Part shown: positions 15,924-56,000 of the stretch, one piece after another | Position numbering within the stretch: position 1 is the stretch's first letter | Layout: each line of letters begins with the position of its first letter | Source: Bacteroidaceae bacterium | GTDB taxonomy: Bacteria; Bacteroidota; Bacteroidia; Bacteroidales; Bacteroidaceae | Assembly (NCBI GenBank): GCA_017483605.1 | Contig: JAFUWG010000048.1 | Location: 62,001-126,000 of the forward strand | Reading direction: 5' to 3' | Length of the DNA: 64,000 nt | Notes under the pieces: generated by a model | Databases searched by the model: none | The model's input: the letters and a program-made list of their open reading frames with translations, nothing else | What the model was told of the DNA's origin: nothing | Position numbers and translations under genes: made by a program

Positions 15924-16042
15924 GCGTTCTTAAAACTAAAGTTATCTCTTATAAAATTAAACTTAAATTTTATAAAATTGAACTTGAATTTATATAAATC
16001 TAACTTGAATTTTATAAAATCCAAGTTTAGTTTTAAGAACGC
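15924..16042 (+). repeat. 21-bp-periodic palindromic intergenic repeat, copy 1
   Basis: The element has 17-bp perfect inverted ends (GCGTTCTTAAAACTAAA and its complement TTTAGTTTTAAGAACGC). Between them lie four 21-bp units, each centred on a palindromic A+T core (ATTTTATAAAAT or ATTTATATAAAT). Orientation is called plus when the TTTATATAAA core is the third unit, as here. This is the most diverged copy: its first unit has lost the core symmetry. Both strands stay open because 21 bp is seven codons, giving the spurious heptapeptide theme N-L-N-F-I-K-L. No plausible translation start or purine ribosome site belongs to it. Confidence 0.9.
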
Positions 16043-16047
16043 TTGCG

Positions 16048-16272
16048 GCAAAAGCAGGAAAACAAAGGCGGTGAAGATGGAAAGGGGAAAGCGGTAAGGG
16101 TGGAAAGAAAAAGGCTGAGAATGTGGAGAGAAGAAGGCGGCGAAGATGGAGAGAGGAAAGCGGAGGAGATAGGAAGGTGATGAAGGTACAGGCAGGAATA
16201 TGATGAAGGTAGAGATAGGAAGAAGATGATGGTGCAGGCTGGAAGATGACGAAGGCGAAGGTGGAAAGATAA
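16048..16272. repeat. Long purine-rich tract with degenerate repeats
   Basis: About 225 bp of the plus strand are overwhelmingly A and G (GAAGATGG, GGAAAG and GAAGGCG motifs recur), with only scattered T and C. A 27-bp unit beginning GCGGTGAAGATGG at 16068 recurs with four changes at 16137 (GCGGCGAAGATGG), an offset of 69 bp. It lies between repeat copy 1 and the deoD promoter. The open frame on the opposite strand, rich in Ser, Pro, Leu and Phe, is an artefact of this composition. Function is unknown. Together with copy 1 it accounts for the 533-bp gap between genes. Confidence 0.75.
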
Positions 16273-16316
16273 ATACTTTTTAATAGGAATTGTTGTTGGA
16301 AATAAAAAAAATTGTG

Positions 16317-16324
16317 TATCTTTG
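16317..16324 (+). promoter_or_regulatory. Bacteroidetes promoter (TATCTTTG) for deoD
   Basis: TATCTTTG matches the Bacteroidetes -7 box TAnnTTTG. A TTGTTG sequence about 22 bp upstream (16290-16295) can serve as the -33 element. It is 43 bp before the deoD start codon. Confidence 0.75.
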
Positions 16325-16367
16325 CAACGACAATTCAACTAACAAAACCTATCAAACTTTTGATATT

Positions 16368-17084
16368 ATGGCAACACCTCACATTTCAGCACCTGAAGGT
16401 GCTTTCGCCAAGACACTTCTGATGCCAGGCGACCCCCTGAGAGCAAAGTTCATTGCAGAGACATTCTTGACCGACCCCAAACTGGTCACTTCCGTTCGCA
16501 ACGTGCTCGGTTACACGGGCACCTACAGGGGTGTGCCTGTGTCGGTGATGGCAAGCGGCATGGGTATGCCCAGCATCGGCATCTACTCCTACGAGTTGTT
16601 CAAGTTCTACGGCGTGGAAAACATCATCCGCATCGGTTCGGCTGGAAGTTACAAGGACTGGCTGAAAGTGATGGATGTGACGCTGGCAGAGAGTGCCGTG
16701 AGCGACTCCAGTTTCGCACTCATCCAGGGTGGCTGCAAGAGCAACCGCATCCTGCCCAATGCAGAACTGAATGCCGCCATCAAGCAGGAAGCCAAAGAAC
16801 TGGGCATTGAACTGAAAATGAGCGTAGTACACTCCAGCGATGTCTTCTATGCAGACCCGTCGCAGGGCACATGGCAGGAACTGGCAGAACGCACCGGAAG
16901 CGACTGTGTGGAGATGGAGAGTTTCGCCCTCTTCCACAACGCCAACATGCTCGGCAAGCGTGCCGCCTGTCTGCTCACCATCAGCGACTCGTTTGTCAGC
17001 CACGTGGAACTGACCTCCGAGGAGCGTCAAAACTCGTTCACCGAAATGATGACGCTGGCACTCGAGACAGCCATCAAATTGTAA
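16368..17084 (+). CDS. deoD: Purine-nucleoside phosphorylase, DeoD type
   Basis: This 238-residue enzyme cleaves purine (deoxy)ribonucleosides with phosphate to free base and sugar-1-phosphate, for salvage in the cytoplasm. Its length and sequence follow the hexameric DeoD family: N-terminus MATPHISAPEG, phosphate-binding MPGDPLRAKF, GMGMPSIGIYSYEL, IRIGSAGSY, ribose-binding VEMESFALF, and TISDSF, where the catalytic Asp is expected. The ATG at 16368 is preferred over an in-frame upstream start because it gives the canonical N-terminus and lies after the promoter. A 55-bp gap leads to the next gene, with no obvious terminator. Confidence 0.95.
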   Translation: MATPHISAPEGAFAKTLLMPGDPLRAKFIAETFLTDPKLVTSVRNVLGYTGTYRGVPVSVMASGMGMPSIGIYSYELFKFYGVENIIRIGSAGSYKDWLKVMDVTLAESAVSDSSFALIQGGCKSNRILPNAELNAAIKQEAKELGIELKMSVVHSSDVFYADPSQGTWQELAERTGSDCVEMESFALFHNANMLGKRAACLLTISDSFVSHVELTSEERQNSFTEMMTLALETAIKL

Positions 17085-17139
17085 CCCATCCATCAACTAA
17101 CCATCAAAAGAATAACCCTATCATCTGAACGAATCTGAC

Positions 17140-20100
17140 ATGAAAAAAGTGTTGCTAACTCTTCTGATGATGTCAACCGCTGTGTGGATGAACGCACAGA
17201 TGGACATCACCCGATATTACTTGTCGAACTATGGGTTTGACGAAAAATTCGACTATACCGCCGACCAATGGACCACGGTGAAAGAGGAAATCAAGGAGGT
17301 GGCAGGCTGGACAGCCGACCTCAGTGCCGGCTACACCATTGTGGGCACGTATGAGTTTGGTTTCCAGGGCACCTACAACACAGCCACCGTGCCAGCCAAA
17401 GGCTATGACGGTGAAGCGGGAGGCGGCCTTGCCATCTCGACGGGGTGGGCCCAGACCTTCATCTTCTACCAGACTGTCACCCTGCCAGCCGGCACCTACA
17501 CCATCAATGTGCCTACCTACAACGGTTCCGACAGGACGGCTGCCACCTCGCAGGTGGCATGGATTCCGTCGAGCGGCACTGCCGTGAGGTCGAAAATCAC
17601 CAGTTACCCCATCGGCGAGTGGACACTCGACCAAATCACCTTCACGCTGACCAAGACCACCACGGGCAAGATTCAGTTCGGCATGAAAGCCGCCTCCAAC
17701 GGCTCTGCCAACTCTGCCAAACTGCTGGTGGATTATGTACAGTTGCTGGGTGAGAACATGACGGTGGACAAATCGGTGCTCGAAGCGACCATTACCTCCG
17801 CCACCACCTACTACGCTGACGGAAAAGGCAATGGTGCCGCCGACCTGAAGGCTGCTATTGATGCCGCACAAAGCGTGGTGGACGACGAAGGTGCTGACCT
17901 CATCACAGTGCTGGAAGCCACCCAGACACTGAACGATGCCATCGAGACCTTCCGCAGCCAAAACATCAGCGAAGAGAATCCCAAAGACTGCACTTCCTAC
18001 ATCCAAAACCCGAGTTTTGAAGACGGGTTCAACAAGTGGACACAGACCAACCTGCAGACCCAAACCAATTCGGACTTCCCGAAGAAGGCTGGTGGAACCT
18101 ACGTGGAAAAGTGGACAGGCTCTGGCAATGTGGGCAATGCGTTGGTGAAACAGACCCTCACCAACCTGCCCAACGGCATCTATAAACTGACGGTTGCCGC
18201 CATGAACTACAGCCAAAGCAACACAACGAAGAAGAACACCGGAGCCTACATCTTTGCGGGCGAGGAAAAGGAAACGGTCTATACCCCCGACGATTACTCC
18301 GTGAAATTCACCAGCATTTCGGGCGATGTGGAAATCGGTTTCGTGGCAGAAAACGCAACTGGTAACTGGATTGCGGTGGATAACTTCCGACTCTACTTCA
18401 TCGGCTATGTGGATGCAGAGACCGTCATTGCAGAACTCAACCGCATCATCAGCGAAGCCGAGGCGTTGCAAACCAGCACGATGTCGAGGAACGCATCCGA
18501 AGAACTGAAGACCGCCATCGATGCAGCCAAACTCATCAACACAGAATCGGCAGATGCCGACATACAGACCGCTTCGCAGAATCTGCGGGCAGCCATCGCT
18601 CATGCCGAAACATCGATTGCGGAGTACAAGACGTTGCAAACTCTGGTGGCAACTGCCGAGCCGCTGCAAACCAACATGATGTCCAATGCGACTGCCGCCA
18701 CCCTCAAGTCTGCACTTGATGCCGCCAAACTCATCTCTTCGGCATCGACCGACACCGAGGTTCAGACGGCAACAGAGGCTCTGACGGCCGCCATCGTCGA
18801 TGCACAGACCTCCATTGCTGTGTATCAAGCACTCGACGAACAAATCAAGGAGGCAGAAGCCGGTTACGACGAGAGCAAGGAAGGTGCAGCCGACCTGAAA
18901 ACGGAAATCGACAAGGCCAAAGCAATGCTGGAGAACGCCGAGGCTGCATCAGAAGATGTGACGAACGAAACGGACGCATTGGCAAAGGCACTGCTGGCGT
19001 TCCATCTTGCCAACGCAACCGCTGGAACAGGCACGGCTCCGAAGGTGACCGAAACGCAGACATACGTTGCGACGGGTGCGACGGAGGCATTGGTACGTGC
19101 CACGATGACCAGCGGCGATTTGCTGGAACGCGGTGTGTGCTGGAGCACGGAGCACGAGCCGACGGTGTTGGACAACCGCACCACCAAGTCGTTCTCGCTG
19201 AAAGGCACCATCTTCCACATCAAGGGCTTGAAGCCTGCCACCGTCTATTATGTTCGTCCATACGTGATGAACAAAACCTACACGGTGGCATATGGCGACG
19301 AACTGAAAATTGTCACCCACCCCAAAGGCACCTGCACCTGGAGTTGGGACGAAGGTGCACCCACCGAGGCTGCCAACGCCCGTTGCCGCAAGGCGATGGA
19401 AGAGACCATTGCCTACTTCAACGAATGGACCGGCATCAAGGGATTCCATCTGTCTGGCCACTATGGAGCACAGACCCCGACTGCTGACTGCTCTTATGGT
19501 GGTTGGATGCGTATCGGTCCGAACGCCTCATACCAGGCCATCGGAACGGTACTGCACGAGACAGGTCACGGCGTGGGTGTAGGCACTCACTGGAGATGGT
19601 ACAACTGTAGCGACACCCGCGAACGCGAGAGCAAATACGGCAAGTGGCTCGGACGTGAGGCAAACGATGTGCTGCATTTCTTGGAGAACTACTATGGAGA
19701 CGAAGTTTACTTCACAGGAGACGCCGTGCATGGCTGGGGAACAACAGCCTCTGGAGCAAAGGGCAATGCCTCCATCTCCTACGACTGGCTGGTGAACGGA
19801 GCCGACAAGGACAAACATACTGAATTGCAATACATTGGCGGTATGTGCATCCTTCACGGACTCTTCATCGACGGTCTCTGCCCTACCGACAACGACCCGA
19901 ACGGCATCGCCGGCTACACCTACAACTTTGACGACTCGAAGAAGTACTATATCATGAACAAGGATGCGGAACGTGGTCTGGGCGAAGGGCTTGTGTATCA
20001 GCGTGCTGGAACAGGCGTCAACTGGCGACCATTCCTGGCACACGAGGAAGTGAACGACTCTGCGGCTTGGTACATCGAGTATAACCCAACCAGCGGCTAC

Positions 20101-20625
20101 TATATGTTCAAGAATGTGGCATCAGGCAAGTACATCTCTCACAACACCAACAACGTAGGCATATCGATGAAGACCATTGCCGAATCCAGCAAACCAGGCA
20201 CGACCGAATACTTCCAGTTGATGCCAGACCGAACGGACGTGACCATCGGCACTGGACGCAACAAGATAACCACTCACGGCTATTGGTTCACCTGGTACTA
20301 CGGTTCACAGAACAGAGCGATGACTGCAAATGACCTCGGCAAAGTGCTGAATACTGGCAACATCAATCAGGCAAGTTTCGACTACAGCGACTTCGCTACC
20401 CAACAGCAATGGATCATCTTTAGCGAAGATGAACTGGAAGCGTATGAAGCGGCTGCAGTGGCTGTAGGCATCCGTACCATCGCCGTGGACGACTCAACCA
20501 TGGATGGGTCAAAGACCGTTGTGGGCATCTACTCGACAGGCGGTGTACAACTGCACGAGACCCAAAAGGGCTTCAACATCATCAAGTACAGCGACGGAAC
20601 AAGTAAGAAAATTTATGTGAAATAG
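17140..20625 (+). CDS. Large secreted multidomain protein with zincin-like motif and T9SS-like C-terminus
   Basis: This 1161-residue protein has a signal peptide of about 19 residues (VWMNAQ). Two beta-sandwich, CBM-like regions follow (about 45-205; about 285-430, IQNPSFEDGFNKW...WIAVDNFRLYF). Helical FIVAR-like repeats (about 435-630, LKTAIDAAKLI) precede a fibronectin-III-like segment (about 640-720, RGVCWSTEHEPT, LKPATVYYVRPYV). A zincin-like motif HETGHGVGVGTHW has His806, Glu807, His810 and a further His817. A ricin-like stretch (about 930-1010) and a C-terminus of the T9SS signal type (GIYSTGGVQL...KIYVK) complete it. The third metal ligand is spaced one residue wider than in metzincins, so peptidase activity is a hypothesis. 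It is probably surface-anchored and shares a transcript with the GH28 gene 1 bp downstream. Confidence 0.7.
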   Translation: MKKVLLTLLMMSTAVWMNAQMDITRYYLSNYGFDEKFDYTADQWTTVKEEIKEVAGWTADLSAGYTIVGTYEFGFQGTYNTATVPAKGYDGEAGGGLAISTGWAQTFIFYQTVTLPAGTYTINVPTYNGSDRTAATSQVAWIPSSGTAVRSKITSYPIGEWTLDQITFTLTKTTTGKIQFGMKAASNGSANSAKLLVDYVQLLGENMTVDKSVLEATITSATTYYADGKGNGAADLKAAIDAAQSVVDDEGADLITVLEATQTLNDAIETFRSQNISEENPKDCTSYIQNPSFEDGFNKWTQTNLQTQTNSDFPKKAGGTYVEKWTGSGNVGNALVKQTLTNLPNGIYKLTVAAMNYSQSNTTKKNTGAYIFAGEEKETVYTPDDYSVKFTSISGDVEIGFVAENATGNWIAVDNFRLYFIGYVDAETVIAELNRIISEAEALQTSTMSRNASEELKTAIDAAKLINTESADADIQTASQNLRAAIAHAETSIAEYKTLQTLVATAEPLQTNMMSNATAATLKSALDAAKLISSASTDTEVQTATEALTAAIVDAQTSIAVYQALDEQIKEAEAGYDESKEGAADLKTEIDKAKAMLENAEAASEDVTNETDALAKALLAFHLANATAGTGTAPKVTETQTYVATGATEALVRATMTSGDLLERGVCWSTEHEPTVLDNRTTKSFSLKGTIFHIKGLKPATVYYVRPYVMNKTYTVAYGDELKIVTHPKGTCTWSWDEGAPTEAANARCRKAMEETIAYFNEWTGIKGFHLSGHYGAQTPTADCSYGGWMRIGPNASYQAIGTVLHETGHGVGVGTHWRWYNCSDTRERESKYGKWLGREANDVLHFLENYYGDEVYFTGDAVHGWGTTASGAKGNASISYDWLVNGADKDKHTELQYIGGMCILHGLFIDGLCPTDNDPNGIAGYTYNFDDSKKYYIMNKDAERGLGEGLVYQRAGTGVNWRPFLAHEEVNDSAAWYIEYNPTSGYYMFKNVASGKYISHNTNNVGISMKTIAESSKPGTTEYFQLMPDRTDVTIGTGRNKITTHGYWFTWYYGSQNRAMTANDLGKVLNTGNINQASFDYSDFATQQQWIIFSEDELEAYEAAAVAVGIRTIAVDDSTMDGSKTVVGIYSTGGVQLHETQKGFNIIKYSDGTSKKIYVK

Positions 20626-20626
20626 C

Positions 20627-21988
20627 ATGAAAAACAGACTCTTAACACTGATGGCATGTGCACTCCTGTGCATGCCATCTTTCGCCAAAAAGTCTGCCGA
20701 CCTCTGGCCCGACGGCACAGAGATTGGCGAGTGGTTCAGACAGACCGACCCTGTCAACGTCAACACACTGGGCAAGCAATACCGCATCACGGATTTCGGC
20801 GTGGTGAACGACGGACAGTTGCACACCGCCGAACTGCAGGCACTCATCGACAAGGTGGCGGCCGATGGGGGCGGTGTGGTGGTTGTGCCCGAAGGCACCT
20901 ACCTGACGGGAGCAATCTTCTTCAAGCAGGGCGTTCATCTGCATCTCTACGATGGCGGAACCCTGATGGGCAGCAACAATCCGAGCGACTACCCCATCTT
21001 GAAGACACGCATTGAAGGTGAAACCTGTCTCTACTACGCTGCCCTCATCAATGCGGACGGGCTGGATGGATTCACTATTTCGGGCAAGGGCACCATCGAC
21101 GGCAACGGCTACACCTTCTGGAAACACTTCTGGGAGCGTCGTTCGTGGAATCCCCGATGCACGAACAAGGACGAGCAACGCCCTCGATTGGTCTATGTGA
21201 GCAACTGCAAGAACGTGCAGATTGATGGCGTGAAACTCCAAAATTCGCCATTCTGGACCACGCACATTTATAACAGCGAGAACATCAAACTGTTGCGTCT
21301 GCACATTTATTCACCAGCCAAACCCGTGAAAGCCCCCAGCACCGATGCTATCGACCTCGACGTGGTGAAGAATGTGCTGGTGAAAGACTGCTACATGAGT
21401 GTGAACGACGATGCCGTAGCCATCAAGGGCGGCAAGGGGCCATACGCTGACTACTGGCGGACAAACTACGATGGCATAGACATCAACAAGTTCCCCGAAA
21501 TGGTGGGCGACGGAGGCAATGAGAACATCATCATCGAAGACTGCGAGTACGGCTTCTGCCACGGCTGTTTGACCTTGGGCAGCGAGTCGAACTATGACCA
21601 CAACATCATTCTGCGTCGCATCAAAGTAGATGAAGCAAACAACCTGCTGTGGCTGAAGATGCGTCCAGACACACCTCAACGGTATGAATACGTTACGGTT
21701 GAAGATATCGAGGGCAACGGCAAAAACTTCATTCTGGTTGCTCCGTGGACACAGTTTTACGATCTAAAAGGCAGAGAGAGCGTCCCCATGTCCTACTCTG
21801 ACCACATTTCGATGCGGAACATCACTTTCGATTGCAACGCTTTTTTCAACGTGAAACAACAGGAAGACCAGTACCATCTTAGCAACTTCACCTTTGAAAA
21901 CTTGACAATTCGTGCCAAGAATACCGATTTCCACACAGAATATGTGGAAAATTTCACCGTGAAGAACGTGAAAGCCGAAAAAAAGTGA
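20627..21988 (+). CDS. Glycoside hydrolase family 28 (polygalacturonase-like)
   Basis: This 453-residue secreted enzyme has a signal peptide MKNRLLTLMACALLCMPSFA. It opens with the usual pectate-enzyme N-terminus ITDFGVVNDGQ...LQALIDKVAADGGGVVVVPEGTY. The right-handed beta-helix carries GH28 active-site motifs: STDAIDLD near 238 (NTD motif, Asn replaced by Ser), NDDAVAIKGG near 260, CHGCLTLGSES (exo-type GHGxxxIGSE variant) and RRIKVDE. It is expected to hydrolyse galacturonan or rhamnogalacturonan in the periplasm or outside the cell. The start codon is 1 bp after the preceding stop, implying translational coupling. The exact substrate cannot be read from the motifs. Confidence 0.9.
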   Translation: MKNRLLTLMACALLCMPSFAKKSADLWPDGTEIGEWFRQTDPVNVNTLGKQYRITDFGVVNDGQLHTAELQALIDKVAADGGGVVVVPEGTYLTGAIFFKQGVHLHLYDGGTLMGSNNPSDYPILKTRIEGETCLYYAALINADGLDGFTISGKGTIDGNGYTFWKHFWERRSWNPRCTNKDEQRPRLVYVSNCKNVQIDGVKLQNSPFWTTHIYNSENIKLLRLHIYSPAKPVKAPSTDAIDLDVVKNVLVKDCYMSVNDDAVAIKGGKGPYADYWRTNYDGIDINKFPEMVGDGGNENIIIEDCEYGFCHGCLTLGSESNYDHNIILRRIKVDEANNLLWLKMRPDTPQRYEYVTVEDIEGNGKNFILVAPWTQFYDLKGRESVPMSYSDHISMRNITFDCNAFFNVKQQEDQYHLSNFTFENLTIRAKNTDFHTEYVENFTVKNVKAEKK

Positions 21989-21996
21989 TAACTTTG
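21989..21996 (+). promoter_or_regulatory. Bacteroidetes promoter (TAACTTTG) for the AspT-like gene
   Basis: TAACTTTG fits TAnnTTTG exactly and begins at the base after the GH28 stop codon, 38 bp before the next start. It separates the transporter pair from the GH28 unit. Confidence 0.7.
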
Positions 21997-22026
21997 TACT
22001 CCGAAAAAAAATGATAACATCACAAT

Positions 22027-24434: not shown

Positions 24435-24486
24435 GGAATTAAATACTTTTAATACAACAAAGTAGCAAAAAGTTATTTTTTTACAT

Positions 24487-24494
24487 TAACTTCG
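24487..24494 (+). promoter_or_regulatory. Possible promoter (TAACTTCG) upstream of the hendecad protein gene
   Basis: TAACTTCG is one mismatch from TAnnTTTG and lies after a T-rich run, 37 bp before the start at 24531. It is weaker than the other promoters in this window. Confidence 0.4.
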
Positions 24495-24530
24495 CACACA
24501 AAATTAAACAGACAGGACATTCAGACCAAC

Positions 24531-28949: not shown

Positions 28950-29064
28950 GTTCTTAAAACTAAACTTAGATTTTATAAAATCAAACTTAAATTTTATAAA
29001 ATTGAACTTAAATTTATATAAATCTAACTTGGATTTTATAAAATCTAAGTTTAATTTTAAGAAC
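28950..29064 (+). repeat. 21-bp-periodic palindromic intergenic repeat, copy 2
   Basis: The element has the same structure as copy 1: GTTCTTAAAACTAAACTTAG at the left, its near-complement CTAAGTTTAATTTTAAGAAC at the right, and four 21-bp units between. Orientation is plus. It differs from copies 3 and 4 (read in the same sense) at only a few positions. The flanks just outside also pair (CCCGA at 28942-28946 with TCTCGGG at 29066-29072, one mismatch inside), extending the possible hairpin. The frame crossing it on the plus strand has no start signal of its own and is not considered a gene. Confidence 0.92.
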
Positions 29065-29154
29065 ATCTCGGGTTTTCGCCTGTTTCAGAGCCTCCACAAC
29101 CCACCGACAGCCCAGGGGCTGATACCCCGAATGGCGTGCTTATCATCATAAAAT

Positions 29155-36625: not shown

Positions 36626-36633
36626 TAACTTTG
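36626..36633 (+). promoter_or_regulatory. Bacteroidetes promoter (TAACTTTG)
   Basis: TAACTTTG is followed by CAAACAG and lies 31 bp before the ATG of the hypothetical gene at 36665. This is the usual spacing in this window. Confidence 0.75.
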
Positions 36634-36664
36634 CAAACAGAAAAACAAATCAGAATAACAACTC

Positions 36665-37234
36665 ATGAATTTATACGTTAGATATTTTGACCACGAATGT
36701 TTGGCCAAAAGTGTAGATGAGGCCATCGATTTCCTGAAAGGCATAGAAGAGATTAAACTTGAAAGCAATGCCGCCAGTCGCATCACAACTTTTCTCAATT
36801 CTTCCAATCTCTACCCTTTCCGTCTGAAGGTGAGTTACTCCAACTATGTCCTGTTCCTCAAAACTGAGGCTGAAAGCCTTGAGGATTTCAAAGAGGAAGA
36901 GGCTCGTCGCAAGGAGCAGAAGACCGACCGTGTTTCCACGATGGCAGAACGGAAAAAGACGATTCTCGATGCCCTCAACGAACAGAAATCCGGATGGTGG
37001 GAAGCAGGACTTCTCTTCAAGCGTGTGATTACCCTGCCCGAGACCGGCAAGTGCAAGTACATCGACACCCGTTTCCGTGTACGCCTCAAGGCCAACAGCG
37101 CAATGGATGCTTACACCCGCATTGTTGACCACTTGAAAAATCGCCCCGAGATTGATCCTCGCTCGCAGTTCCCATCTGCCAAGAGTCCAAACTTCGAATA
37201 CACATTCATTGAGCCAGAAGGAGAAGAGGCATAA
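36665..37234 (+). CDS. Conserved hypothetical protein
   Basis: This 189-residue protein has no signal peptide or membrane segment. The N-terminal part (MNLYVRYFDHECLAKSVDEAIDFLKGI) looks alpha/beta. A charged helix (about 80-110, EEEARRKEQKTDR) links to a C-terminal domain (about 115-189). I recognise no catalytic motif. It has its own promoter and a shared convergent terminator, so it is a single-gene unit. It is probably a cytoplasmic protein conserved in Bacteroidales; function unknown. Confidence 0.75.
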   Translation: MNLYVRYFDHECLAKSVDEAIDFLKGIEEIKLESNAASRITTFLNSSNLYPFRLKVSYSNYVLFLKTEAESLEDFKEEEARRKEQKTDRVSTMAERKKTILDALNEQKSGWWEAGLLFKRVITLPETGKCKYIDTRFRVRLKANSAMDAYTRIVDHLKNRPEIDPRSQFPSAKSPNFEYTFIEPEGEEA

Positions 37235-39538: not shown

Positions 39539-39654
39539 CGTCTTAAAACTAAACTTAGATTTTATAAAATTCAAGTTAGATTTATATAAATTTAAGTTCA
39601 ATTTTATAAAATTTAAGTTTGATTTTATAAAATCTAAGTTTAGTTTTAAGAACG
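39539..39654 (-). repeat. 21-bp-periodic palindromic intergenic repeat, copy 3
   Basis: The element is read on the minus strand in the same sense as copies 1 and 2. Four 21-bp units with ATTTTATAAAAT or ATTTATATAAAT cores lie between ends GTTCTTAAAACTAAACTTAG and CTAAGTTTAGTTTTAAGAC (one base shorter at that end). It begins 14 bp beyond the minus-strand terminator of topB and upstream of porE, filling most of the 282-bp gap. Open frames through it on both strands are composition artefacts. Confidence 0.92.
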
Positions 39655-47837: not shown

Positions 47838-47847
47838 AATAGTTTGA

Positions 47848-47866
47848 AGTGGCTTGCCACTTTTTG
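47848..47866 (+). terminator. Short intrinsic terminator after cdsA
   Basis: A 6-bp stem, AAGTGG with CCACTT, has loop CTTG and runs into TTTTTG. Confidence 0.7.
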
Positions 47867-47901
47867 TAACCGTAATAACAACCTCTTAAACAAAACTAAC
47901 T

Positions 47902-49830
47902 ATGACTGAAATTCAGAACCCCACTGAGGAACCTGTAGTAGAACCTACAGTTGAAACAGCAACTGCACCTGTCCAGGAGACAGTGCCAGCAGCCGAAGAG
48001 CCAGCAGCACCTGCTGTTGAAGAAGAAACTCCCGCTGTTGAAGAAGAAACTCCTGCTGTTGAGGAGCCTGCTGTTGAAGAACCAGCCGCTACAGAAGCAG
48101 CCGAAGAGCCTCAGGCAGAAAACTCAACGACTCCTATCGCCACTTATGAGACAAAAGCCCAGGTCGTTGAACGGCTGAAAGCGCTTGTTGCAAGCGACGA
48201 AGAAGTAACACGTCAAGAACTCGACAGCCTGAAGAGCAACTTCTACCGCATCCACCATCAGGAGGCTGATGCTGCCTACAAGAAGTTCATCGAAGAAGGC
48301 GGAAATGCCGAAGAGTACACCCCTGCCCCCAACCTTGAAGAAGCAGATTTCAAGGAGCAGATGACACTCATCCGCGAGAAGCGTGCGGCTGCCGCTGCCG
48401 CTCTTGAGCAGGAACGCGAGGCAAACTTCCAAAAGAAGACAGAAATCATTGACAAAATAAAGACGCTGACAGAAAATCCAGACGAAATCAATCGTGCCTA
48501 CAACGACTTCAAGGAGTTGCAGCAGCAGTGGAACGACATCAAGGACGTTCCTGCCGAAAAGGCAACATCTCTCTGGAAGAACTACCAGCAGGCAGTAGAA
48601 GCATTCTACGACACTCTGAAACTGAGCAACGAACTGCGTGCCTACGACTTCAAGAAGAACCTCGAACGCAAGACAGCACTCTGCGAGGCAGCCGAGAAGT
48701 TAGCAGACGAGACAGACATCATCTCCGCCTTCCGCAAGTTACAGCAACTCCATCAGGAGTTCCGCGAGACAGGTCCTGTCGCTAGCGACCTTCGTGAGCA
48801 GATTTGGACACGCTTCAAGGACGCTTCCACCGTCATCAACAAGCGTCACCAGGAGTATTTCGAGGCTCGCAAGCAGCAAGAAGAGGAGAACCTCACCAAG
48901 AAGACAGCCATCTGCGAGACCATCGAAGGCTTCAACCTCGACGAACTGAAGACCTTTGCCGAGTGGAACGCCATCTCCGACAAGATTACCGCCCTGCAAG
49001 CAGAGTGGAAGACCATCGGCTTCGCTCCGCAGAAGATGAACACCAAGATTTTCGAGCGTTTCCGTGCCGCTTGCGACAACTTCTTCACTCGCAAGAGCGA
49101 ATACTTCCAATCCGTTCGCGACAACCTCAACCAGAACTACGCCCTCAAACTCGACCTCGTGGAGAAAGCCGAGGCACTGAAGGACAGCACCGAATGGAAG
49201 AAAACCACCGATGCACTTGTTGAGTTGCAGAAGAAGTGGAAGGAAATCGGCACTGTGCCCAAGAAGTTCAGCGACCAGATTTGGGAGCGTTTCAATGCTG
49301 CTTGCGACGCCTTCTTTGCCGCCAAGAAAGAGGCAAACCAAGGTGCTCATGCCGAGCAGACAGAGAACATGGAAAAGAAGAAGAGCATCATCGATGAATT
49401 GGCAGCCATCGTGCCAGAAGAGTTCGAGGGTGACCTTCGTGCCAAACTCCGTGCTGCACAGGAAGAGTGGAACCAGATTGGCCACGTGCCATTCAAGGAA
49501 AAAGATAAACTCTACAAACTCCTCCGCGAGCAGATGGACAGACTTTACGGCTTCGCCAACCAGAACGCCACAAAGCGTCGCATCGACCGCTTCAAGGAGA
49601 GCATCAAGGGAGGCAACGGCAACGATATCCGCTCACGCCTCATGCGTCAACTCGACATCCTGAAAAACGAGATTAAGACCTACGAGAACAACCTCGGCTT
49701 CCTCAACATCTCCAACAAATCTAAGCAGAGCAACGCCCTTGTCGAAGAACTCAATCGCAAGATGGACAAACTCCGTGCAGACATGGAGGAAGTGAAGGCT
49801 AAAATCGCCGCACTCGAGGAGAACAACTAA
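47902..49830 (+). CDS. DUF349-repeat protein
   Basis: This 642-residue cytoplasmic protein has an acidic low-complexity N-terminus (about 1-75) with repeats of E-E-T-P-A-V-E encoded by a 24-bp tandem near 48018-48075. Several DUF349-type helical repeats follow (about 150-540), each with a conserved W: LQQQWNDIKDVP, LHQEFRETGPV, LQAEWKTIGFAP, LQKKWKEIGTVPKKFSDQIWERF, AQEEWNQIGHVP. A C-terminal coiled coil (about 570-642) ends the protein. DUF349 proteins are common in Bacteroidetes; their biochemical role is unsettled. A strong terminator follows. Confidence 0.9.
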   Translation: MTEIQNPTEEPVVEPTVETATAPVQETVPAAEEPAAPAVEEETPAVEEETPAVEEPAVEEPAATEAAEEPQAENSTTPIATYETKAQVVERLKALVASDEEVTRQELDSLKSNFYRIHHQEADAAYKKFIEEGGNAEEYTPAPNLEEADFKEQMTLIREKRAAAAAALEQEREANFQKKTEIIDKIKTLTENPDEINRAYNDFKELQQQWNDIKDVPAEKATSLWKNYQQAVEAFYDTLKLSNELRAYDFKKNLERKTALCEAAEKLADETDIISAFRKLQQLHQEFRETGPVASDLREQIWTRFKDASTVINKRHQEYFEARKQQEEENLTKKTAICETIEGFNLDELKTFAEWNAISDKITALQAEWKTIGFAPQKMNTKIFERFRAACDNFFTRKSEYFQSVRDNLNQNYALKLDLVEKAEALKDSTEWKKTTDALVELQKKWKEIGTVPKKFSDQIWERFNAACDAFFAAKKEANQGAHAEQTENMEKKKSIIDELAAIVPEEFEGDLRAKLRAAQEEWNQIGHVPFKEKDKLYKLLREQMDRLYGFANQNATKRRIDRFKESIKGGNGNDIRSRLMRQLDILKNEIKTYENNLGFLNISNKSKQSNALVEELNRKMDKLRADMEEVKAKIAALEENN

Positions 49831-49890
49831 TGATGCATAAAATGATTGAGTCCCTATAGAAACCTATAGAATCAATAGACCCTAAAACCA

Positions 49891-49925
49891 GAAGTAGCAG
49901 CACCTCGTGCTGCTACTTCATTTTT
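49891..49925 (+). terminator. Intrinsic terminator after the DUF349 gene
   Basis: A perfect 13-bp stem, GAAGTAGCAGCAC with GTGCTGCTACTTC, has a 3-nt loop and then ATTTTT. It overlaps the stop codon of the minus-strand gene that ends at 49913, so it sits at the convergence point. Confidence 0.93.
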
Positions 49926-51001
49926 CTGACCATCCACCACCACACATTATCCCACCACACACGTGGCAACTCATGCGGAGCCAAAGGCATCAAGCGGCAC
50001 ATCCTTGTCAAACGCCGCCAGAACTTCCTCACCTTCTTTTCCTGCCCATACACGCCGACTGACAAGTCATCTGCACTCACCACTCCCACCTTCATAATAT
50101 CGTCCAGCAGCAACGTTCCCAGCCATTTGCTGGGCGGACAGAGCAACACACCATCCTCCATCCCCCACAAACTGAAAATATACATCACAGCAGCCACAAA
50201 GTTTCCCAGCCCTAACACACTTAGCGTTTCCATTGCCTCCCTCCGTTCATCCGCCGATGCACTCATCATCAGCCAATAATAATCCACCAACTGCTTCATG
50301 CCGCACCCCTCAAACGCCCAGTGGTGCAGCAGATGCAACAAGATGAACACAAGGTCAAAATTCTTCGAGGGCACCCGAATCTTCCCCACTCCCTCAGGCA
50401 GTTCCGCCCAATGGTTCCACTGCTTTGGCTCCATCTCCTCCATCCATTTCCTCAAACGCTCATCACGCTTTGGCGACGACAGCCGCACTGGCCTGTAATG
50501 CACTTCCATCTCCACTCCATTCTTCAGCATTGTCGCCACGTGGTACATATTCGGACCTTCCACCTGCTCATAGTGCGACCTCATATACTCCACCACCTGC
50601 TCCTTTCCACCCTGCATCCACACATCAATATCCCCCGTCGCCCTTCTCAACGGTTTCGGGTACAACACGCTCATCCCCTGCCCCTTCAGGATGCACACAC
50701 GCACCCCATCCTGTTCAAACCGCTCACACACCTCCACACACGCCTTGTTCAGCCGCCGATTCTCCTTTGCCAGATAATCCTCCGCAGCCGCCCAATCCAT
50801 AATCATCTCCACAGGTGGCATCTGCTCCTTCGGCAGCCGTTCCACCCCATCAAACATCACCCCCACAAGCCCCTGCCTCACGGACATGGCAAACAACTCC
50901 TCCCACTCTTTCGGCGTGGGGGTGACATCCAGACGCTTCGCATTGCCCAAGGCAACACGCATCAGTTCTATGAATTGAGGACATATCATGTCGTCATCCA
51001 T
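49913..51001 (-). CDS. Nucleotidyltransferase-like protein (PF14907-type)
   Basis: This protein has 362 residues from the ATG at 51001; a TTG further upstream would put the start inside a hairpin. The segment VCILKGQGMSVLYPKP followed by RRATGDIDVWM carries the G-D-I-D acidic pair of nucleotidyltransferase-fold proteins of the uncharacterised NTP_transf_5 group. HHWAFEGCGMKQLVDYYWL lies further on, and the C-terminus is rich in Trp and Arg. Such proteins occur near small-peptide and surface-polysaccharide genes in Bacteroidetes; the substrate is unknown. It follows a 56-residue peptide gene on the same strand but is separated from it by a terminator-like hairpin. Confidence 0.75.
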   Translation of the reverse strand: MDDDMICPQFIELMRVALGNAKRLDVTPTPKEWEELFAMSVRQGLVGVMFDGVERLPKEQMPPVEMIMDWAAAEDYLAKENRRLNKACVEVCERFEQDGVRVCILKGQGMSVLYPKPLRRATGDIDVWMQGGKEQVVEYMRSHYEQVEGPNMYHVATMLKNGVEMEVHYRPVRLSSPKRDERLRKWMEEMEPKQWNHWAELPEGVGKIRVPSKNFDLVFILLHLLHHWAFEGCGMKQLVDYYWLMMSASADERREAMETLSVLGLGNFVAAVMYIFSLWGMEDGVLLCPPSKWLGTLLLDDIMKVGVVSADDLSVGVYGQEKKVRKFWRRLTRMCRLMPLAPHELPRVWWDNVWWWMVRKMK

Positions 51002-51042
51002 AAAAAACGATAGCCACACTCCCAAGAATGCGGCTATCGTTT
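51002..51042 (-). terminator. Terminator-like hairpin whose T tract abuts a start codon
   Basis: On the minus strand, AAACGATAGCC (51042-51032) pairs perfectly with GGCTATCGTTT (51015-51005) around a 16-nt loop. Six T end exactly at the A of the ATG at 51001. It could end transcripts from the peptide gene, or act as an attenuator or translation-controlling structure for the nucleotidyltransferase gene. Confidence 0.8.
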
Positions 51043-51051
51043 AACAGAGTG

Positions 51052-51222
51052 TTACATTGCATCTCGTCCTTTAGTGACGGTATTTGTTCCCCAAATGTCA
51101 TCACCAGAATCTTCAACTCCTGGTGTAGAACCACCTCCTATTGAACCAGAGCTGCTAAGAATGTAAGTCTTAACACGAGTCTGACGAACTTTCGTCACGG
51201 GTGCCATATAAACCTTTTTCAT
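51052..51222 (-). CDS. 56-residue small peptide, leader/Gly-rich-core-like
   Basis: The ATG at 51222 and TAA at 51054-51052 encode a 56-residue peptide. A basic N-terminal half (MKKVYMAPVTKVRQTRVKTY) leads to a Ser/Gly-rich stretch (SSSGSIGGGSTPG) and an acidic/polar tail ending KGRDAM. It starts 28 bp after the stop of the large surface-protein gene and ends 10 bp before a terminator hairpin, so it fits one transcript. From memory, small proteins opening M-K-K-x-Y-x-x-P are frequent in Prevotella and Bacteroides, often near PF14907-type genes. A precursor-peptide role is a guess. No cleavage site or modifying enzyme is evident. Confidence 0.6.
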   Translation of the reverse strand: MKKVYMAPVTKVRQTRVKTYILSSSGSIGGGSTPGVEDSGDDIWGTNTVTKGRDAM

Positions 51223-51250
51223 TTTCTTGTCTGTTTTTATCGTTATACAT

Positions 51251-54200
51251 TTATTTTACATACACTTTTTTACCATTAAGGATGTAGAAGCCCTTCGTTG
51301 GGGCCTTCACTGGCACACCTTGCAGGGTGTAGAAAGTACCGTTATTGATGGCACGTGAGAGATTCTCCGTTGTCATCCCTTCGCCGTCCTTTGCCTGCAC
51401 ATCTACAATGCTGGTCACCAAATCTCCATCATCGATGAAATAAACCTGCTTGATGGATTCTGTGTCATAAACAGAAGCACCTTCCTCCGCATTACGACGT
51501 TTAGATTCCACATCTTGATTTCTACGCTCTCTGACACCACACAACTGCATATAAGCCACATGGTCACCCAGCAACTCGCCTTCATAATATCCCTTTGGCT
51601 CAGTTGGGTCTGGAGTACCCTGCTTCATAAGCAAATAGAATCCTAAACCTTCCACATAACTTTGGATTTCATCTTGCTTAGAATAGTCATTCTCATCAAA
51701 TTTCACAAGATATCCATTAACAGCCAAAACGTAATTCCAATAATCCAAGCCATTCTTTTGGGTTCTCTGGTCAAGCACATAGTCGTTGTTGTAAGCCGTG
51801 TTGCGTGTCAACTCACCCGTAGCAGCAGCTAACTGGCTCTGGAATGCCACACCAATCAACTTATTGTTCGACATATCGGAAGGAGCACGGTCGATGTCCG
51901 TCGTGAACAATGGCCAAGTGGTTGCGTTCTGCTTGTAGAGATAGTCACCCGTAATCAGCACACCCGACTGATTAGGAACTGCCAACGTTGCAGGAATGTA
52001 GCGAACCTCAGAGAGTGTCACCTTGCCTGTTTCGTCATATGCTGTGCCTGAATATTCCGTGTCTTTCACGCTCATCACCTTAAATGCCTTCTGCTCTTCG
52101 CCGAGGAAAGTGTATGCCAATGTAAAGTCAAGTGGATATTCACGTGCCTCCGTTGCATAACCATATCTTGTCACATTCTTCGTATCGACAGATACAGCCA
52201 CCTTGTGAACCTGAATATTCTTCAGGAAGAGGTTGACATCGCCGCCAGAACCTGCAATCTTATAGACATTCAGCGGGGTAGAATGGTAGTAGCCATTGCC
52301 ATAGTTGAAGTCGTTGCTGTTGGATGGGTTGTAACTGTCCACATACACACGACCCGTGTAGTTTTCTCGACTGATGGGGTTGTCGATGCTGCCAAGAGCC
52401 ACGCTGGAATTGTTCGTGTCGCCCGTTACAGCCAAGTAAACCGTCTGGCCATACTGCACGTTAGGCACAATGAGTTGATATACACTATCGTTGCTGAGTG
52501 TCAGACCATTCTGGTCGGGTTGCAACTGCACTTTTCGATCATTCTCATCCCAATATGCCACAGGGATGAAGCCAAGACCATCAGTTTCTGGTACGAAATT
52601 TTCAGAAACTTCACCACCCGAAGCACTATAAGTGTAAGTAAAGCCATAGAAGCCGAGTTTAGAACCAGAAGCATAAACCTTATAAGAATTACCCACTTTC
52701 ACGTTGAATGTGTAGGTGGTATTAGTCGTGCTCGTCGTGGTAGCACTCGTGTAGATGTTGCTACCGTTTTCATCCACCGACAACGCTTTGTTATTAGCGA
52801 TGCGGACAGCCACGGTAACAGAACCACTATAGTTGGGTTGGATGGTGTAGAATGTTCCACCCTGCTTGTTGCCATTCTCTCCGTTACCTGCGGTATAAGC
52901 CGTATAGCCACTGATGCTGCCATCTTCTGTAGCAGCCTTAAAATCAGCACCGCCGCTTTCACCATACGTGATGGTAGCCACACCACCTCCCACGTTCACT
53001 GTCTGTCCCGAAGTGAAAGAGTCGCCATTCGAGAGTGCATACTTCACCGTGTTCGACAAGCCACTGCCAACCGCCTTCTTCTTCAGAGCAATCATGTTCT
53101 CTGGGTATCCCACATTGAAGTACTTGTTGTTGCCAGAGGCATAAGACCAATAGTGCTGGTCATTACTGCCCATATTGGCATCGGCATTCAGTTCTGCCAA
53201 GGTGTTGTTGCCCGTGTCGGTTGTGAAGTGCTCCATTGCCCAAGTGTAAGGGTAAGGCTTTACGTTGTAGTCATATTCATAAACCTTCACACGCACATGG
53301 CAACTGTCGAGCAGATAGCCATATTCACAACTGCCCCACACATTCTGACGCGACTCCAGCACCAGCGTGAAACTACCGTGAGCATTCGGAGCTATGTTCA
53401 ACGTTTCGCCGTCGGTCAGTGTACAGTTGCTTTCCGTCAGTGTACCCGTGCGTGAGCCGTCCAAAATGTAATACTTGTCAATCTGACTACTCTGAGTGTG
53501 AATCTGACCTTTGTTTCTCCACAACGTGGTTGAGATATTACCAGTGCCAGCCTTACGCAGGTAAGTATAAATCATGGCATGTGGATGAGCAATATCACTT
53601 TCGTTTGTATCGTTCAGTTCTCGGTCAAACGCTGTTCCACTATAGTATTTCGATTTCATGTGTGTGTCGAGGAACTCATCTACAGACCCCACCTTGATTT
53701 CGTAGATGTTCGCCCAACCGGTTTCCGTAACTTGGAATGTCACATCACCATCATTCTCCACCACAAACTGCTGGTGTCCCTGCGTTGTCAAATTAGCACC
53801 AGAGCCTATATAAAAATATTTACCGGTCATGCTCGTGCCATCCAAATCCGTCACATTCCATGCCATAAACCTATCACCAGTTGCTTCCTCGTGACGATTC
53901 CAACGGATACGGATATGCTGCCCCTTCTTCAACTTCGGAATGACGAACGAAGCACCGTTCTGGATGGTGATAGCAGCAGACATCGTGGAAGACTCCACAT
54001 TGTTCGGCAACGTGTAAGTCTCTCTGATTCGGCGCAACAACACATCTGCCTCATCTTGTGACAATCCATCCGTCGTATATTCAGGGGTTACAGTCGTATT
54101 GGTGCCAAAATGAAGCGGTTCGCTATAGAACATCAAACCTGCTGTAGCATCAATGTATCGTGCGTTGTCGCCCGACACCGCTATAGCATTAGAGAAGACG

Positions 54201-55549
54201 GGGTGATTCAGATACTCCAACTTCGAATTGGTCGCTGTGTCAAAATGACGCACTTTCCATTCTAACTTCCAATCGTTGCCGTATGCTGTATTGGCATAAA
54301 GATCTGCCTTTGTCTCCGTGTTATAGAAATTCCACACATGGGTAGAATAAGGTTTGGTGATAACCGTCTGTGCCACACTCATGATAGGGCTCTGATAATA
54401 ATAACTATCGTTTTTGTCTGTCAAATAACCCACAGACGCTTCCTGTGCCGTCACCACAAGAGCACCACCTTCGCCACTGATGTTGTAAATTTCGCCCGTC
54501 GCACTATTGATGGATGCCGACATATCGCCCTTACCTTCAATGGAGTAAGTCACATTCGTTCCGTCCGACACAGTCAATTGGGTGCTTGTCTCATTTGACA
54601 TTTCATATGACCTCGAAGCAAAACTGATAGCCTTTGGCGAGTACACCTCAATGGTGTAAACCACCAGATAGCGGCCATCATTGTCAGATGTATCAATTGC
54701 CACATATCCGTCGCCCAAAGCCCGAGCCACCATTGTGCTCACAGAGCCACAATAAAACGATCCGGCAGGTTCCACTGCTACATTTCGCCACTGGAATGTT
54801 CTTCCTTCGCCCGAATTGCCGTTATTTACCGAACCTGTCACCTTCACATAGGCACCTTTTGTCACAGGAATGTAGAGCGTTGCACCTGACATCACTTGGA
54901 GTTGTGTCGCAGCATCTGTACGAATGGTACCTGTAGCCTTCAAGCCATTTGTTTCTGGCACCACCGTTCCTCGATAAGTTATTGCTTCATTGTTGTAACC
55001 ATCATGATAAACTATCGTTGTGCTTTTGGTAACCCAATCGCCACCTTGTACCAACACACTGCGTGTTGTTGACCAACTATTCGTGAAATCCCATGTCTCC
55101 ACCGTCTTATCATTGGAACTTGAGGTGGTGCGTCCGCCTAACACATAAATGTGATACAAGCGTGGGACTGCTCCAGAACCGAAAGATTTGAGACCATTCA
55201 GATGGACAACATTATCAACCCGGAAATTAGCGAGGTCGATATCCACAAATCCATCTACGCCAATCGTTGCGTGATACTCTGTTCCGTCATTGAAAAAGAC
55301 ACGATAAGTACCCTGTTGACCTTCCAGACGAAGGATGCCATAATTAGACAAATCCACATAAGTACTTGACGAAGGGCTATTATTACCATAATAGGCGTTC
55401 AGATAACCCATATTGTGGTTCACATAACGTGTTTCACAGCCGCCCACATAACTTAATTGTGTGATTTCTGTCTGTGCCCAGACACTACTCATTGTCCCTC
55501 CTATCGCCATGAGGAGTGACAACATAAACAGTTTGTAAATCTTTTTCAT
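51251..55549 (-). CDS. Very large secreted surface protein with T9SS-like C-terminus
   Basis: This 1432-residue protein has a signal peptide (MKKIYKLFMLSLLMAIGG...SVWAQ). The body is beta-rich with several similar modules: repeated blocks with TWDFTNSWS / VWNFYNTETKADL / YTWAMEHFTTDTG openings, YIPVTKGAYVKVTG / FVIPKLKKGQHIRIRW / LIVPNVQYGQTVYLAV strands, and TVNVGGGVATITYG with NKQGGTFYTIQPNYSGSVTV. Ser, Thr, Asn, Gly and Tyr dominate. The end (FYTLQGVPVKAPTKGFYILN then GKKVYVK) matches the Prevotella-type T9SS C-terminal signal. It is probably exported by T9SS and anchored outside. No catalytic motif is evident. A 56-residue peptide gene follows on the same strand. Confidence 0.75.
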   Translation of the reverse strand: MKKIYKLFMLSLLMAIGGTMSSVWAQTEITQLSYVGGCETRYVNHNMGYLNAYYGNNSPSSSTYVDLSNYGILRLEGQQGTYRVFFNDGTEYHATIGVDGFVDIDLANFRVDNVVHLNGLKSFGSGAVPRLYHIYVLGGRTTSSSNDKTVETWDFTNSWSTTRSVLVQGGDWVTKSTTIVYHDGYNNEAITYRGTVVPETNGLKATGTIRTDAATQLQVMSGATLYIPVTKGAYVKVTGSVNNGNSGEGRTFQWRNVAVEPAGSFYCGSVSTMVARALGDGYVAIDTSDNDGRYLVVYTIEVYSPKAISFASRSYEMSNETSTQLTVSDGTNVTYSIEGKGDMSASINSATGEIYNISGEGGALVVTAQEASVGYLTDKNDSYYYQSPIMSVAQTVITKPYSTHVWNFYNTETKADLYANTAYGNDWKLEWKVRHFDTATNSKLEYLNHPVFSNAIAVSGDNARYIDATAGLMFYSEPLHFGTNTTVTPEYTTDGLSQDEADVLLRRIRETYTLPNNVESSTMSAAITIQNGASFVIPKLKKGQHIRIRWNRHEEATGDRFMAWNVTDLDGTSMTGKYFYIGSGANLTTQGHQQFVVENDGDVTFQVTETGWANIYEIKVGSVDEFLDTHMKSKYYSGTAFDRELNDTNESDIAHPHAMIYTYLRKAGTGNISTTLWRNKGQIHTQSSQIDKYYILDGSRTGTLTESNCTLTDGETLNIAPNAHGSFTLVLESRQNVWGSCEYGYLLDSCHVRVKVYEYDYNVKPYPYTWAMEHFTTDTGNNTLAELNADANMGSNDQHYWSYASGNNKYFNVGYPENMIALKKKAVGSGLSNTVKYALSNGDSFTSGQTVNVGGGVATITYGESGGADFKAATEDGSISGYTAYTAGNGENGNKQGGTFYTIQPNYSGSVTVAVRIANNKALSVDENGSNIYTSATTTSTTNTTYTFNVKVGNSYKVYASGSKLGFYGFTYTYSASGGEVSENFVPETDGLGFIPVAYWDENDRKVQLQPDQNGLTLSNDSVYQLIVPNVQYGQTVYLAVTGDTNNSSVALGSIDNPISRENYTGRVYVDSYNPSNSNDFNYGNGYYHSTPLNVYKIAGSGGDVNLFLKNIQVHKVAVSVDTKNVTRYGYATEAREYPLDFTLAYTFLGEEQKAFKVMSVKDTEYSGTAYDETGKVTLSEVRYIPATLAVPNQSGVLITGDYLYKQNATTWPLFTTDIDRAPSDMSNNKLIGVAFQSQLAAATGELTRNTAYNNDYVLDQRTQKNGLDYWNYVLAVNGYLVKFDENDYSKQDEIQSYVEGLGFYLLMKQGTPDPTEPKGYYEGELLGDHVAYMQLCGVRERRNQDVESKRRNAEEGASVYDTESIKQVYFIDDGDLVTSIVDVQAKDGEGMTTENLSRAINNGTFYTLQGVPVKAPTKGFYILNGKKVYVK

Positions 55550-55681
55550 ATTATAATGTTGTTTTTGTTTTGATTTGCGATTAGTAGTTCTGTTGTATAT
55601 TGTGGGTAATTTGTTGGATATTATTTCCGATATGGTAGGAGATGTTTCCGCAGCGAGTGGCTACGAGAAACTTAATTAGGG

Positions 55682-55689
55682 CAAAGATA
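55682..55689 (-). promoter_or_regulatory. Bacteroidetes promoter (TATCTTTG) for the large surface protein
   Basis: TATCTTTG on the minus strand lies 133 bp before the ATG at 55549 and leaves an untranslated leader of about 125 nt with no evident fold. Confidence 0.6.
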
Positions 55690-55797
55690 TGTAATCTGGG
55701 GGAGGTGGAAAAGAGATTTTAGGATTTTTTAGCCTTTCGGGGTGGCAATTTTTGGTGGTTTTTTGTTTGAATGTTCTGATTGCAAAGTGCAGATTGC

Positions 55798-55880
55798 AAC
55801 AAAAGGAGGGAAACGAGGGGATGAGATGGCAGGAGGAAAAGGAGCGATGTGAGGGGACGGGAAAGTGGGTTGGCGGGGAG
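55798..55880. repeat. Second purine-rich tract beside a 21-bp-periodic repeat
   Basis: About 85 bp of plus strand rich in G and A (GGAGGGAAACGAGGGG, GGCAGGAGGAAAAGGAG, GGGGACGGGAAAG) end directly at repeat copy 4. No clear internal repeat is seen. With copy 4 and two promoters it makes up the 574-bp divergent gap. Confidence 0.55.
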
Positions 55881-56000
55881 GGGTCTTAAAACTAAACTTA
55901 GATTTTATAAAATTCAAGTTAGATTTATATAAATTTAAGTTCAATTTTATAAAATTTAAGTTGGATTTTATAAAATCTAAGTTTAGTTTTAAGAACGCCC
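55881..56000 (-). repeat. 21-bp-periodic palindromic intergenic repeat, copy 4
   Basis: Read on the minus strand it matches copies 2 and 3 almost base for base: GTTCTTAAAACTAAACTTAG end, four 21-bp units with the TTTATATAAA core third, and CTAAGTTTAGTTTTAAGAC end. Its flanks add GGG/CCC complementarity. Unlike the other three it lies between divergent promoters and not behind a terminator. The frames crossing it on both strands are not considered genes. Confidence 0.92.

What the first reader, a model, noticed from the sequence alone, without database searches (positions are those of the whole stretch)
15924..56000. Family of four near-identical intergenic elements with an exact 21-bp period
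Seen: copies at 15924-16042, 28950-29064, 39539-39654 and 55881-56000 share about 112 bp. Each has four 21-bp units with a palindromic A+T core (ATTTTATAAAAT, or ATTTATATAAAT in the third unit) between inverted ends (GTTCTTAAAACTAAACTTAG and its complement). 21 bp is two helical turns, so all cores would face the same side of DNA. The whole element is also an imperfect palindrome. Four copies in 64 kb implies a high-copy genome-wide family. Inference: it could be a phased protein-binding array, a structured RNA hairpin, or a small non-autonomous mobile element. I know of no description of it.
Basis: partly seen in the sequence, partly recalled or inferred. Interest (0 to 1): 0.85.

Follow-up and report, generated by a model that had tools for sequence, protein, structure and literature searches.

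The report
Dispersed palindrome-array mobile-like DNA element
The four repeats belong to a family of short, non-coding, hairpin-forming DNA elements scattered between genes of one uncultured bacterium, and related species of its genus carry elements of the same design but with different letters, which makes this an unusually fast-changing kind of bacterial repeat.

Summary
In detail: palindromic A+T cores at an exact 21-bp step between inverted ends. The genome has 38 copies, 33 with four units, the rest with 1, 2, 3 or 5.

The A+T family occurs in 2 of 45 congeners, but the design is genus-wide: a de novo scan finds arrays of palindromic units, mostly with a 23-bp period, in 13 further species, with other core sequences. 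None was found in 262 kb from 20 other families.

In the stretch of relative G064 syntenic to the window, all three arrays lie where this genome has A+T copies. In two close species pairs an orthologous array persists with other half-sites or centres. Three core families share outer arms at both ends. One family sits inside a 142-143 bp inverted-repeat element.

Best reading: a non-autonomous, MITE-like modular element, closest to the P. gingivalis BrickBuilt MITE and pneumococcal BOX, with palindromic units that turn over fast. No transposase, target duplication or function was shown. A protein-binding array remains possible; a strand-specific RNA role is disfavoured.

The parts
15926..16040 (+). 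Copy 1: A+T palindromic array (four units, first core degenerate) between inverted ends
16041..16054 (+). Right outer arm of copy 1 (GCTTGCGGCAAAAG), near the family arm consensus
16068..16255 (+). Purine-rich minisatellite of 23-bp period next to copy 1
   Evidence: TRF; 23-bp period in flanks of copies
28950..29065 (+). Copy 2: four-unit array, between a TonB-C-terminal gene and a polyprenyl synthetase gene, downstream of a terminator-like hairpin
39541..39653 (-). Copy 3: four-unit array, between a PD40/OmpA gene and a DNA topoisomerase gene (both on the minus strand)
55884..55996 (-). Copy 4: four-unit array, between a divergent gene pair (1432-aa ORF without Pfam match on the minus strand, DUF1573 protein on the plus strand)

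Best explanation
Each copy is a non-autonomous, MITE-like interspersed element built from modules: outer GC-rich inverted arms, degenerate terminal cores and a variable number of 21-bp palindromic units. It belongs to a genus-wide class in which the same design carries different core sequences. Shown: dispersal, unit-number variation, patchy presence, array-free orthologous sites, outer arms shared by several core families, inverted-repeat ends of the D family, and species-specific half-sites or centres at orthologous sites. Inferred: copies spread by a transposase acting in trans on the ends and are tolerated mainly between genes; units are gained and lost by recombination or slippage; insertion turnover or conversion between copies rewrites the arrays of a genome together. 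Any effect on neighbouring genes (hairpin in read-through RNA, protein binding) would be secondary.
For: 38 copies with 1-5 units. 2 of 45 congeners and, among 84,980 species genomes, one organism by exact pattern, own-genome records possibly left out. At the L062 gene junction, read in 30 of the 38 species with a match, 27 have 0-87 bp between the aligned parts of the two genes, while G000 (one unit), G023 and G007 have 248, 331 and 250 bp holding units of two different families (G007 array scored). At site 2, read in 30 of 43 species with a match, 25 have no array by eye and 77-185 bp. D-family cores lie inside 142-143 bp elements with GAGGGTGTGTCAAA-type inverted ends, 3 copies in G064. The arm motif TTTWGAGG (up to one mismatch) stands at both ends of 9 of 36 scan hits against 0.46% of random places (motif chosen after viewing part of these arrays). 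G036 and G013 (91-94% identical on the two sides) carry a 3-unit and a 1-unit version at the same site.
Against: No consistent target-site duplication in the 35 copies tested. No transposase with matching ends was found; the D-end search, in held DNA only, paired four short elements and no longer one. The A+T core is far more alike between copies than its outer arms, which simple decay after insertion does not predict. Shared positions between species suggest targeting, selection or in-place replacement rather than random insertion. Genus membership rests on the tool's labels; the genomes are draft, many incomplete.
Confidence: 0.6

Rival explanations
1. The arrays are binding sites for a dimeric DNA-binding protein (nucleoid, insulator or repressor type); half-sites co-evolve with the protein, so each genome has its own version.
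For: The families seen are palindromes of roughly 12-19 bp repeated at 21-24 bp; both half-sites differ together between G068/G003 (AGC) and seven other species (TAC or AAC); core more conserved than arms; some positions shared across species with different cores.
Against: One genome carries several unrelated core families (five in G064); 23 bp is not an integral number of turns; 43 of 45 congeners lack the A+T family; pairing symmetry within TGTTAC-type units is imperfect (14 of 500 shuffles reach the observed covariation score).
Confidence: 0.22
2. The copies act as structured RNA: attenuators, stabilisers or terminators in read-through transcripts.
For: Very stable long hairpins, z -7.2 to -13.8 for the four window copies; several copies lie next to terminator-like hairpins or between adjacent genes.
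Against: Array polarity shows no clear preference relative to genes: +/+ 14, +/- 10, -/+ 8, -/- 6 of 38; no Rfam match in 5 sources; two copies tried as DNA fold well too, z -10.5 and -10.2, so folding alone does not point to RNA; A+T units should hardly fold alone (inference).
Confidence: 0.1
3. The copies are REP/REPIN elements moved by a RAYT (Y1) transposase.
For: Dispersed extragenic palindromes with genome-specific sequence, as in REPINs; G000 has one Y1_Tnp match over the cut-off.
Against: G023 (99% complete) has the elements but no Y1_Tnp match at E 0.001; 14 of 45 genomes have a match over the cut-off, 13 of them without the A+T elements.
Confidence: 0.03
4. The arrays arise in place by slippage and hairpin template switching, without mobility.
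For: Unit number varies; a middle unit looks inverted between G010 and G011.
Against: 38 copies of the same family at different loci need copying between loci.
Confidence: 0.05

Closest known systems
BrickBuilt MITE of Porphyromonas gingivalis (PMC4596501)
   Same: Intergenic, 19 copies in strain ATCC 33277, tandem 23-nt units inside a MITE with inverted ends, varying unit number, predicted long stem loops, 10 of 19 flanked by terminators or polyadenylation sites, narrow host range.
   Different: The A+T family here has a 21-bp period, 1-5 units and palindromic cores (the word start 'palindrom' does not occur in the paper's text; the 23-nt sequence itself was not seen); BrickBuilt-type ends were found in 2 of 70 flanks, both of one copy; here many core families differ between congeneric species.
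Pneumococcal BOX element (PMC3049150)
   Same: Modular: end modules with a variable number of tandem middle modules, dispersed, predicted to fold as RNA.
   Different: BOX end modules are around 50 nt in the passages read and it is a streptococcal family; the middle units here are palindromes at 21-24 bp with rapid sequence turnover.
REP/REPIN elements with RAYT (PMC3116915)
   Same: Short extragenic palindromes, genome-specific families, proposed transposase coupling.
   Different: No RAYT coupling; tandem arrays with outer arms instead of REP doublets.
Organellar repetitive hairpin or double-hairpin elements (search listing only)
   Same: Mobile hairpin repeats, as named in listed titles and abstracts.
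   Different: Mitochondrial; not 21-24 bp arrays as far as recalled.

Membership tests
MITE | Terminal inverted repeats | tested here: met
   Inverted ends in the four window copies; outer arms degenerate; D family has clear ends
MITE | Target-site duplication | tested here: not met
   No offset with direct repeats in excess of shuffled pairs in 35 of 38 copies; three of a near-identical group left out
MITE | Ends shared with a full-length IS in the genome | tested here: inconclusive
   D ends searched in held DNA only; four short pairs found. Not done for the A+T family
MITE | Dispersed copies and presence/absence at orthologous sites | tested here: met
   between species, not between strains
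BrickBuilt | 23-nt tandem units | tested here: not met
   21 bp in this family; 23 bp in most sister families and in flanks of several copies
BrickBuilt | GAGACCTTTGCA-type IS5 ends | tested here: not met
   2 of 70 flanks of 120 bases, both of one copy
BOX | boxA-(boxB)n-boxC modular layout | tested here: inconclusive
   Layout alike (end, n units, end), sequences not compared
REPIN | Coupled RAYT gene | tested here: not met
Known RNA family | Rfam match | tested here: not met
   0 matches at gathering score in the window and four relatives' pieces

The most novel reading that the evidence does not exclude
A genus-wide class of intergenic palindrome arrays keeps its design, outer arms and some positions while the palindromic recognition sequence is rewritten in all units and many loci of a genome at once. 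This would imply a trans-acting factor (transposase or DNA-binding protein) of changing specificity that copies or selects its own sites, a counterpart of DNA uptake dialects or REPIN/RAYT co-evolution with an unknown protein.
Probability: 0.3. Interest if true: 0.85.

Novelty: new variant of a known kind. Interest (0 to 1): 0.6.

Why it matters
Short bacterial repeats are usually described one species at a time. Here one design can be followed across many congeneric species, with arrays present and absent at orthologous sites, close species pairs and several core families per genome. That makes it possible to ask how a non-coding repeat changes its sequence genome-wide, and which protein, if any, reads it. 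It also warns that absence by sequence search (43 of 45 species) hides presence by design.

Tried and rejected
RAYT/REPIN coupling: rejected by distribution.

Target hypothesis (element inserted into a pre-existing GC palindrome): the six arm hits of G000 all lie beside copies, one further hit is in G003. Left/right arm covariation is weak (positions 9-13 z 2.3; positions 1-4 are negative, z -3.1).

Phage or plasmid origin: 0 viral contigs for exact patterns of three core families, no phage match, one 37-base plasmid match in Vibrio at E 4e-3.

Target-site duplications: none. Rfam: none. General 23-bp periodicity of array-free intergenic DNA: not seen in 10 of 11 genus sets (G036 the exception, z 3.6).

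Corrected on checking: I first took G064 for the nearest relative of G000. That rests on one protein (93%); with two others it has 86% and 87% and G034 and G002 rank first, so the relationship is open. A binomial probability for 4 of 10 shared positions is biased, because the G064 DNA was partly chosen for synteny with G000 elements; I no longer use it.

Of the scan hits, a period-20 poly-T/C hit in G064 was dropped from the 10 arrays. Several hits (for example L225, G011 12982, G014 15750) look like low complexity or chance and were left in the 36. L145/L227, L146/L228, L144/L199 and L143/L100 are pairs of loci with one array each.

Full report
The observation. The four places were read directly. 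Each holds A+T palindromic cores at a 21-bp step between inverted ends of the type GTTCTTAAAACT / AGTTTTAAGAAC, which themselves look like degenerate terminal cores. Copies 1 and 2 lie on the plus strand, 3 and 4 on the minus strand. Copy 1 has a damaged first core.

Copy number and anatomy. A search of the window's own genome (G000, 3.06 Mb, 56 contigs, 81.5% complete) gives 77 matches that collapse to 38 loci, since each locus matches on both strands. Lengths between the conserved ends: 33 loci with four units, two with five (L023, L028), one with two (L061), one with one (L062), one divergent copy that I read as three units (L060). The array is polar: the ATTTATATAAAT core keeps its place. 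Outside the ends lie GC-rich arms, consensus about GAAC-RYYT-GCGGC-AAAAG, whose conservation fades over about 33 bases. The four window copies fold far better than shuffled sequence as RNA (z -7.2 to -13.8); the two tried as DNA do so too.

Distribution of the A+T family. In 45 genomes of the genus only G000 and G023 match the pattern. In the 32 G023 pieces that I fetched (20 internal, 12 at contig ends, so an exact number of arrays cannot be given) the complete copies read have three units and other spacer letters. G064 lacks the family; by one flanking protein it is nearest to G000 (93%), by two others it is not (86% and 87%), so the phylogeny is open.

The design is genus-wide. At window sites 1-3 the relative G064 has its own arrays of other palindromes. 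A scan for three tandem units with palindromic cores found: window 4 in 64 kb; G064 11 hits in 354 kb (one low-complexity); G002 3 in 160 kb; G007 5 in 125 kb; G026 2 in 100 kb; G017 0 in 100 kb; shuffled controls 0 in three rounds each. Further pieces of genus members (404 kb) gave 14 hits, some duplicates, already known or low complexity, with clear arrays in G068, G014, G010, G011, G036, G004, G034 and G065; 262 kb from 20 other families gave 0. G013 has one too. That makes 13 species besides G000 and G023. Periods are mostly 23 bp, with 21, 22 and 24. Cores include CGTACCC-nnn-GGGTACG, TCGGACTG-GAG-CAGTCCGA, CCGACGTG-GGG-CACGTCGG, GGTGAGAGTCTCACC, TGTTAC-nnnn-GTAACA and GAATAATTATTC. G000 itself has a 23-bp array of another family (L179:16544). 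The sample of other families was small, and BrickBuilt shows that similar designs exist elsewhere.

Sites with and without arrays. At the L062 junction I read 30 of the 38 species with a match: 27 have 0-87 bp between the aligned parts of the two proteins; G000, G023 and G007 have 248, 331 and 250 bp with units of the A+T family (one unit in G000) or, in G007, of a 23-bp family. At window site 2, 5 of 30 species read (43 had a match) have arrays by eye: G000, G064, G007, G068 and G014, of four families. At site 3 it is 2 of 30 (39 had a match): G000 and G064. At the L028 site G000 and G023 have the A+T array; 20 pieces from 19 other species gave no scan hit and G003 showed none by eye, but the gene on the other side differs there, so this is not strictly the same gap.

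Shared positions. Four of 10 G064 arrays lie next to genes that flank a G000 element: copy 2 with both flanks, copies 1, 3 and L061 with one. The G064 DNA was partly chosen for synteny with G000 elements, so 4 of 10 overstates the genome-wide rate. Within the chosen stretch (C30:18001-72000) all three G064 arrays fall on three of the four window sites; with an assumed 35-70 gaps the chance is 6e-4 to 7e-5, loosely, since at copies 1 and 3 G064 has 3-4 kb of other DNA in the gap. G000 and G023 share L062, L008, L019 and L028, judged by hand from coordinates; other flank matches (L003, L010, L018, L024, L002) lie at unlike distances or on the other side and were not counted.

Turnover in place. 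G068 and G014 both have a four-unit array between the same two genes (they read like mlaE and mlaF; recalled, not tested), in flanks about 86% identical. The spacer ACACTGGCACTGT is kept, but half-sites are TGTAGC/GCTACA in G068 and TGTTAC/GTAACA in G014. In held DNA G068 has 17 units in 4 arrays, none with TAC; G014 has 17 units in 4 arrays, 13 TAC/TAC; G003 (one array) is AGC; G036 (three arrays) and G013, G010, G011, G033 and G007 (one array each) are TAC or AAC with few exceptions. The pattern search (9 of 45 species; list cut short before G068) shows one TGTAGC locus in G014 among mainly TGTTAC ones, so the separation is not complete. Formal pairing covariation over 20 distinct units is weak, because mixed TAC/AAC units are common. 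G036 and G013 carry, at one orthologous site, a three-unit and a one-unit array with different centres, G013's centre being that of its other array.

Common ends. The motif TTTWGAGG (one mismatch allowed), often followed by TTGYGGAAG, stands at both ends of 9 of 36 scan hits and at one end or more of 17 of 36, against 0.46% and 13.3% of random places. I chose the motif after seeing part of these arrays. Both-end cases belong to three core families (B, D and G of my notes); A, E and F show it at one end. The A+T family has TTTTAAGAAC-nnn-TGCGGCAAAAG in the same place; the likeness is suggestive only. D-family arrays of G064 sit inside 142-143 bp elements with GAGGGTGTGTCAAA-type ends, and G007 has a 121-bp element with TGAGGCCGTGTCAAAA ends.

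Mechanism. I judge a MITE-like non-autonomous element most likely (0.6). Against it stand the missing target duplication, the unknown transposase and the core being better conserved than the arms. The binding-array rival explains core conservation and paired half-site change, but several unrelated core families per genome and the sparse distribution fit it less well. Orientation counts (+/+ 14, +/- 10, -/+ 8, -/- 6 of 38; simple ORF caller, 7 of 38 overlapped by an ORF of 150 aa or more that may be spurious) give no support to a strand-specific RNA role.

Known relatives. For BrickBuilt I read outline, abstract, passages and part 1 of section 7 of PMC4596501: 23-nt tandem units inside a MITE with leader and tail, 19 intergenic copies, IS5-type ends. 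For BOX (PMC3049150), REPINs (PMC3116915) and P. gingivalis repeats (PMC5771137) I read passages. PMC3733652 was seen as a listing only. Searches for a description of such arrays in Prevotella or Bacteroidales listed nothing closer than BrickBuilt; the library holds only open-licence papers. I therefore call this a new variant of a known kind, with an unusual feature: one design, many rapidly replaced palindromes.

Noticed in passing
window 16068-16255; flanks of L002, L005, L016, L062; G036 C56 about 36630-36830: Minisatellites of 23-bp period next to arrays; the flanks of the 21-bp A+T elements show a 23-bp autocorrelation peak at 10-100 bases from the ends, recalling the 23-nt unit of BrickBuilt.
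   Followed up: partly
L056, L057, L058, L059 (G000 contigs C10 and C25): Four copies form a subfamily with a core ATTTATGAAAAT and the same adjoining hairpin GGCAAAGCGGAAACACCGCTTTG on one side.
   Followed up: no
window 49830-56035: A stretch of about 6 kb with two ORFs and copy 4 stands where G064 has about 90 bp, so copy 4 lies at a synteny breakpoint.
   Followed up: no
L176:11037-13804 (G064 C30): At the site of copy 3, G064 carries its own array upstream of an HU-like gene, followed by a DNA methyltransferase-like gene, not present in the corresponding gap of G000 (names by eye).
   Followed up: no
L368 (G034): An unrelated long palindrome (TTTAAACTTTA-type arms) upstream of the L028-type gene.
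   Followed up: no
G010 C8:42725 and G011 C24:34823: The middle unit of an orthologous array appears inverted between two species about 91% identical there.
   Followed up: no
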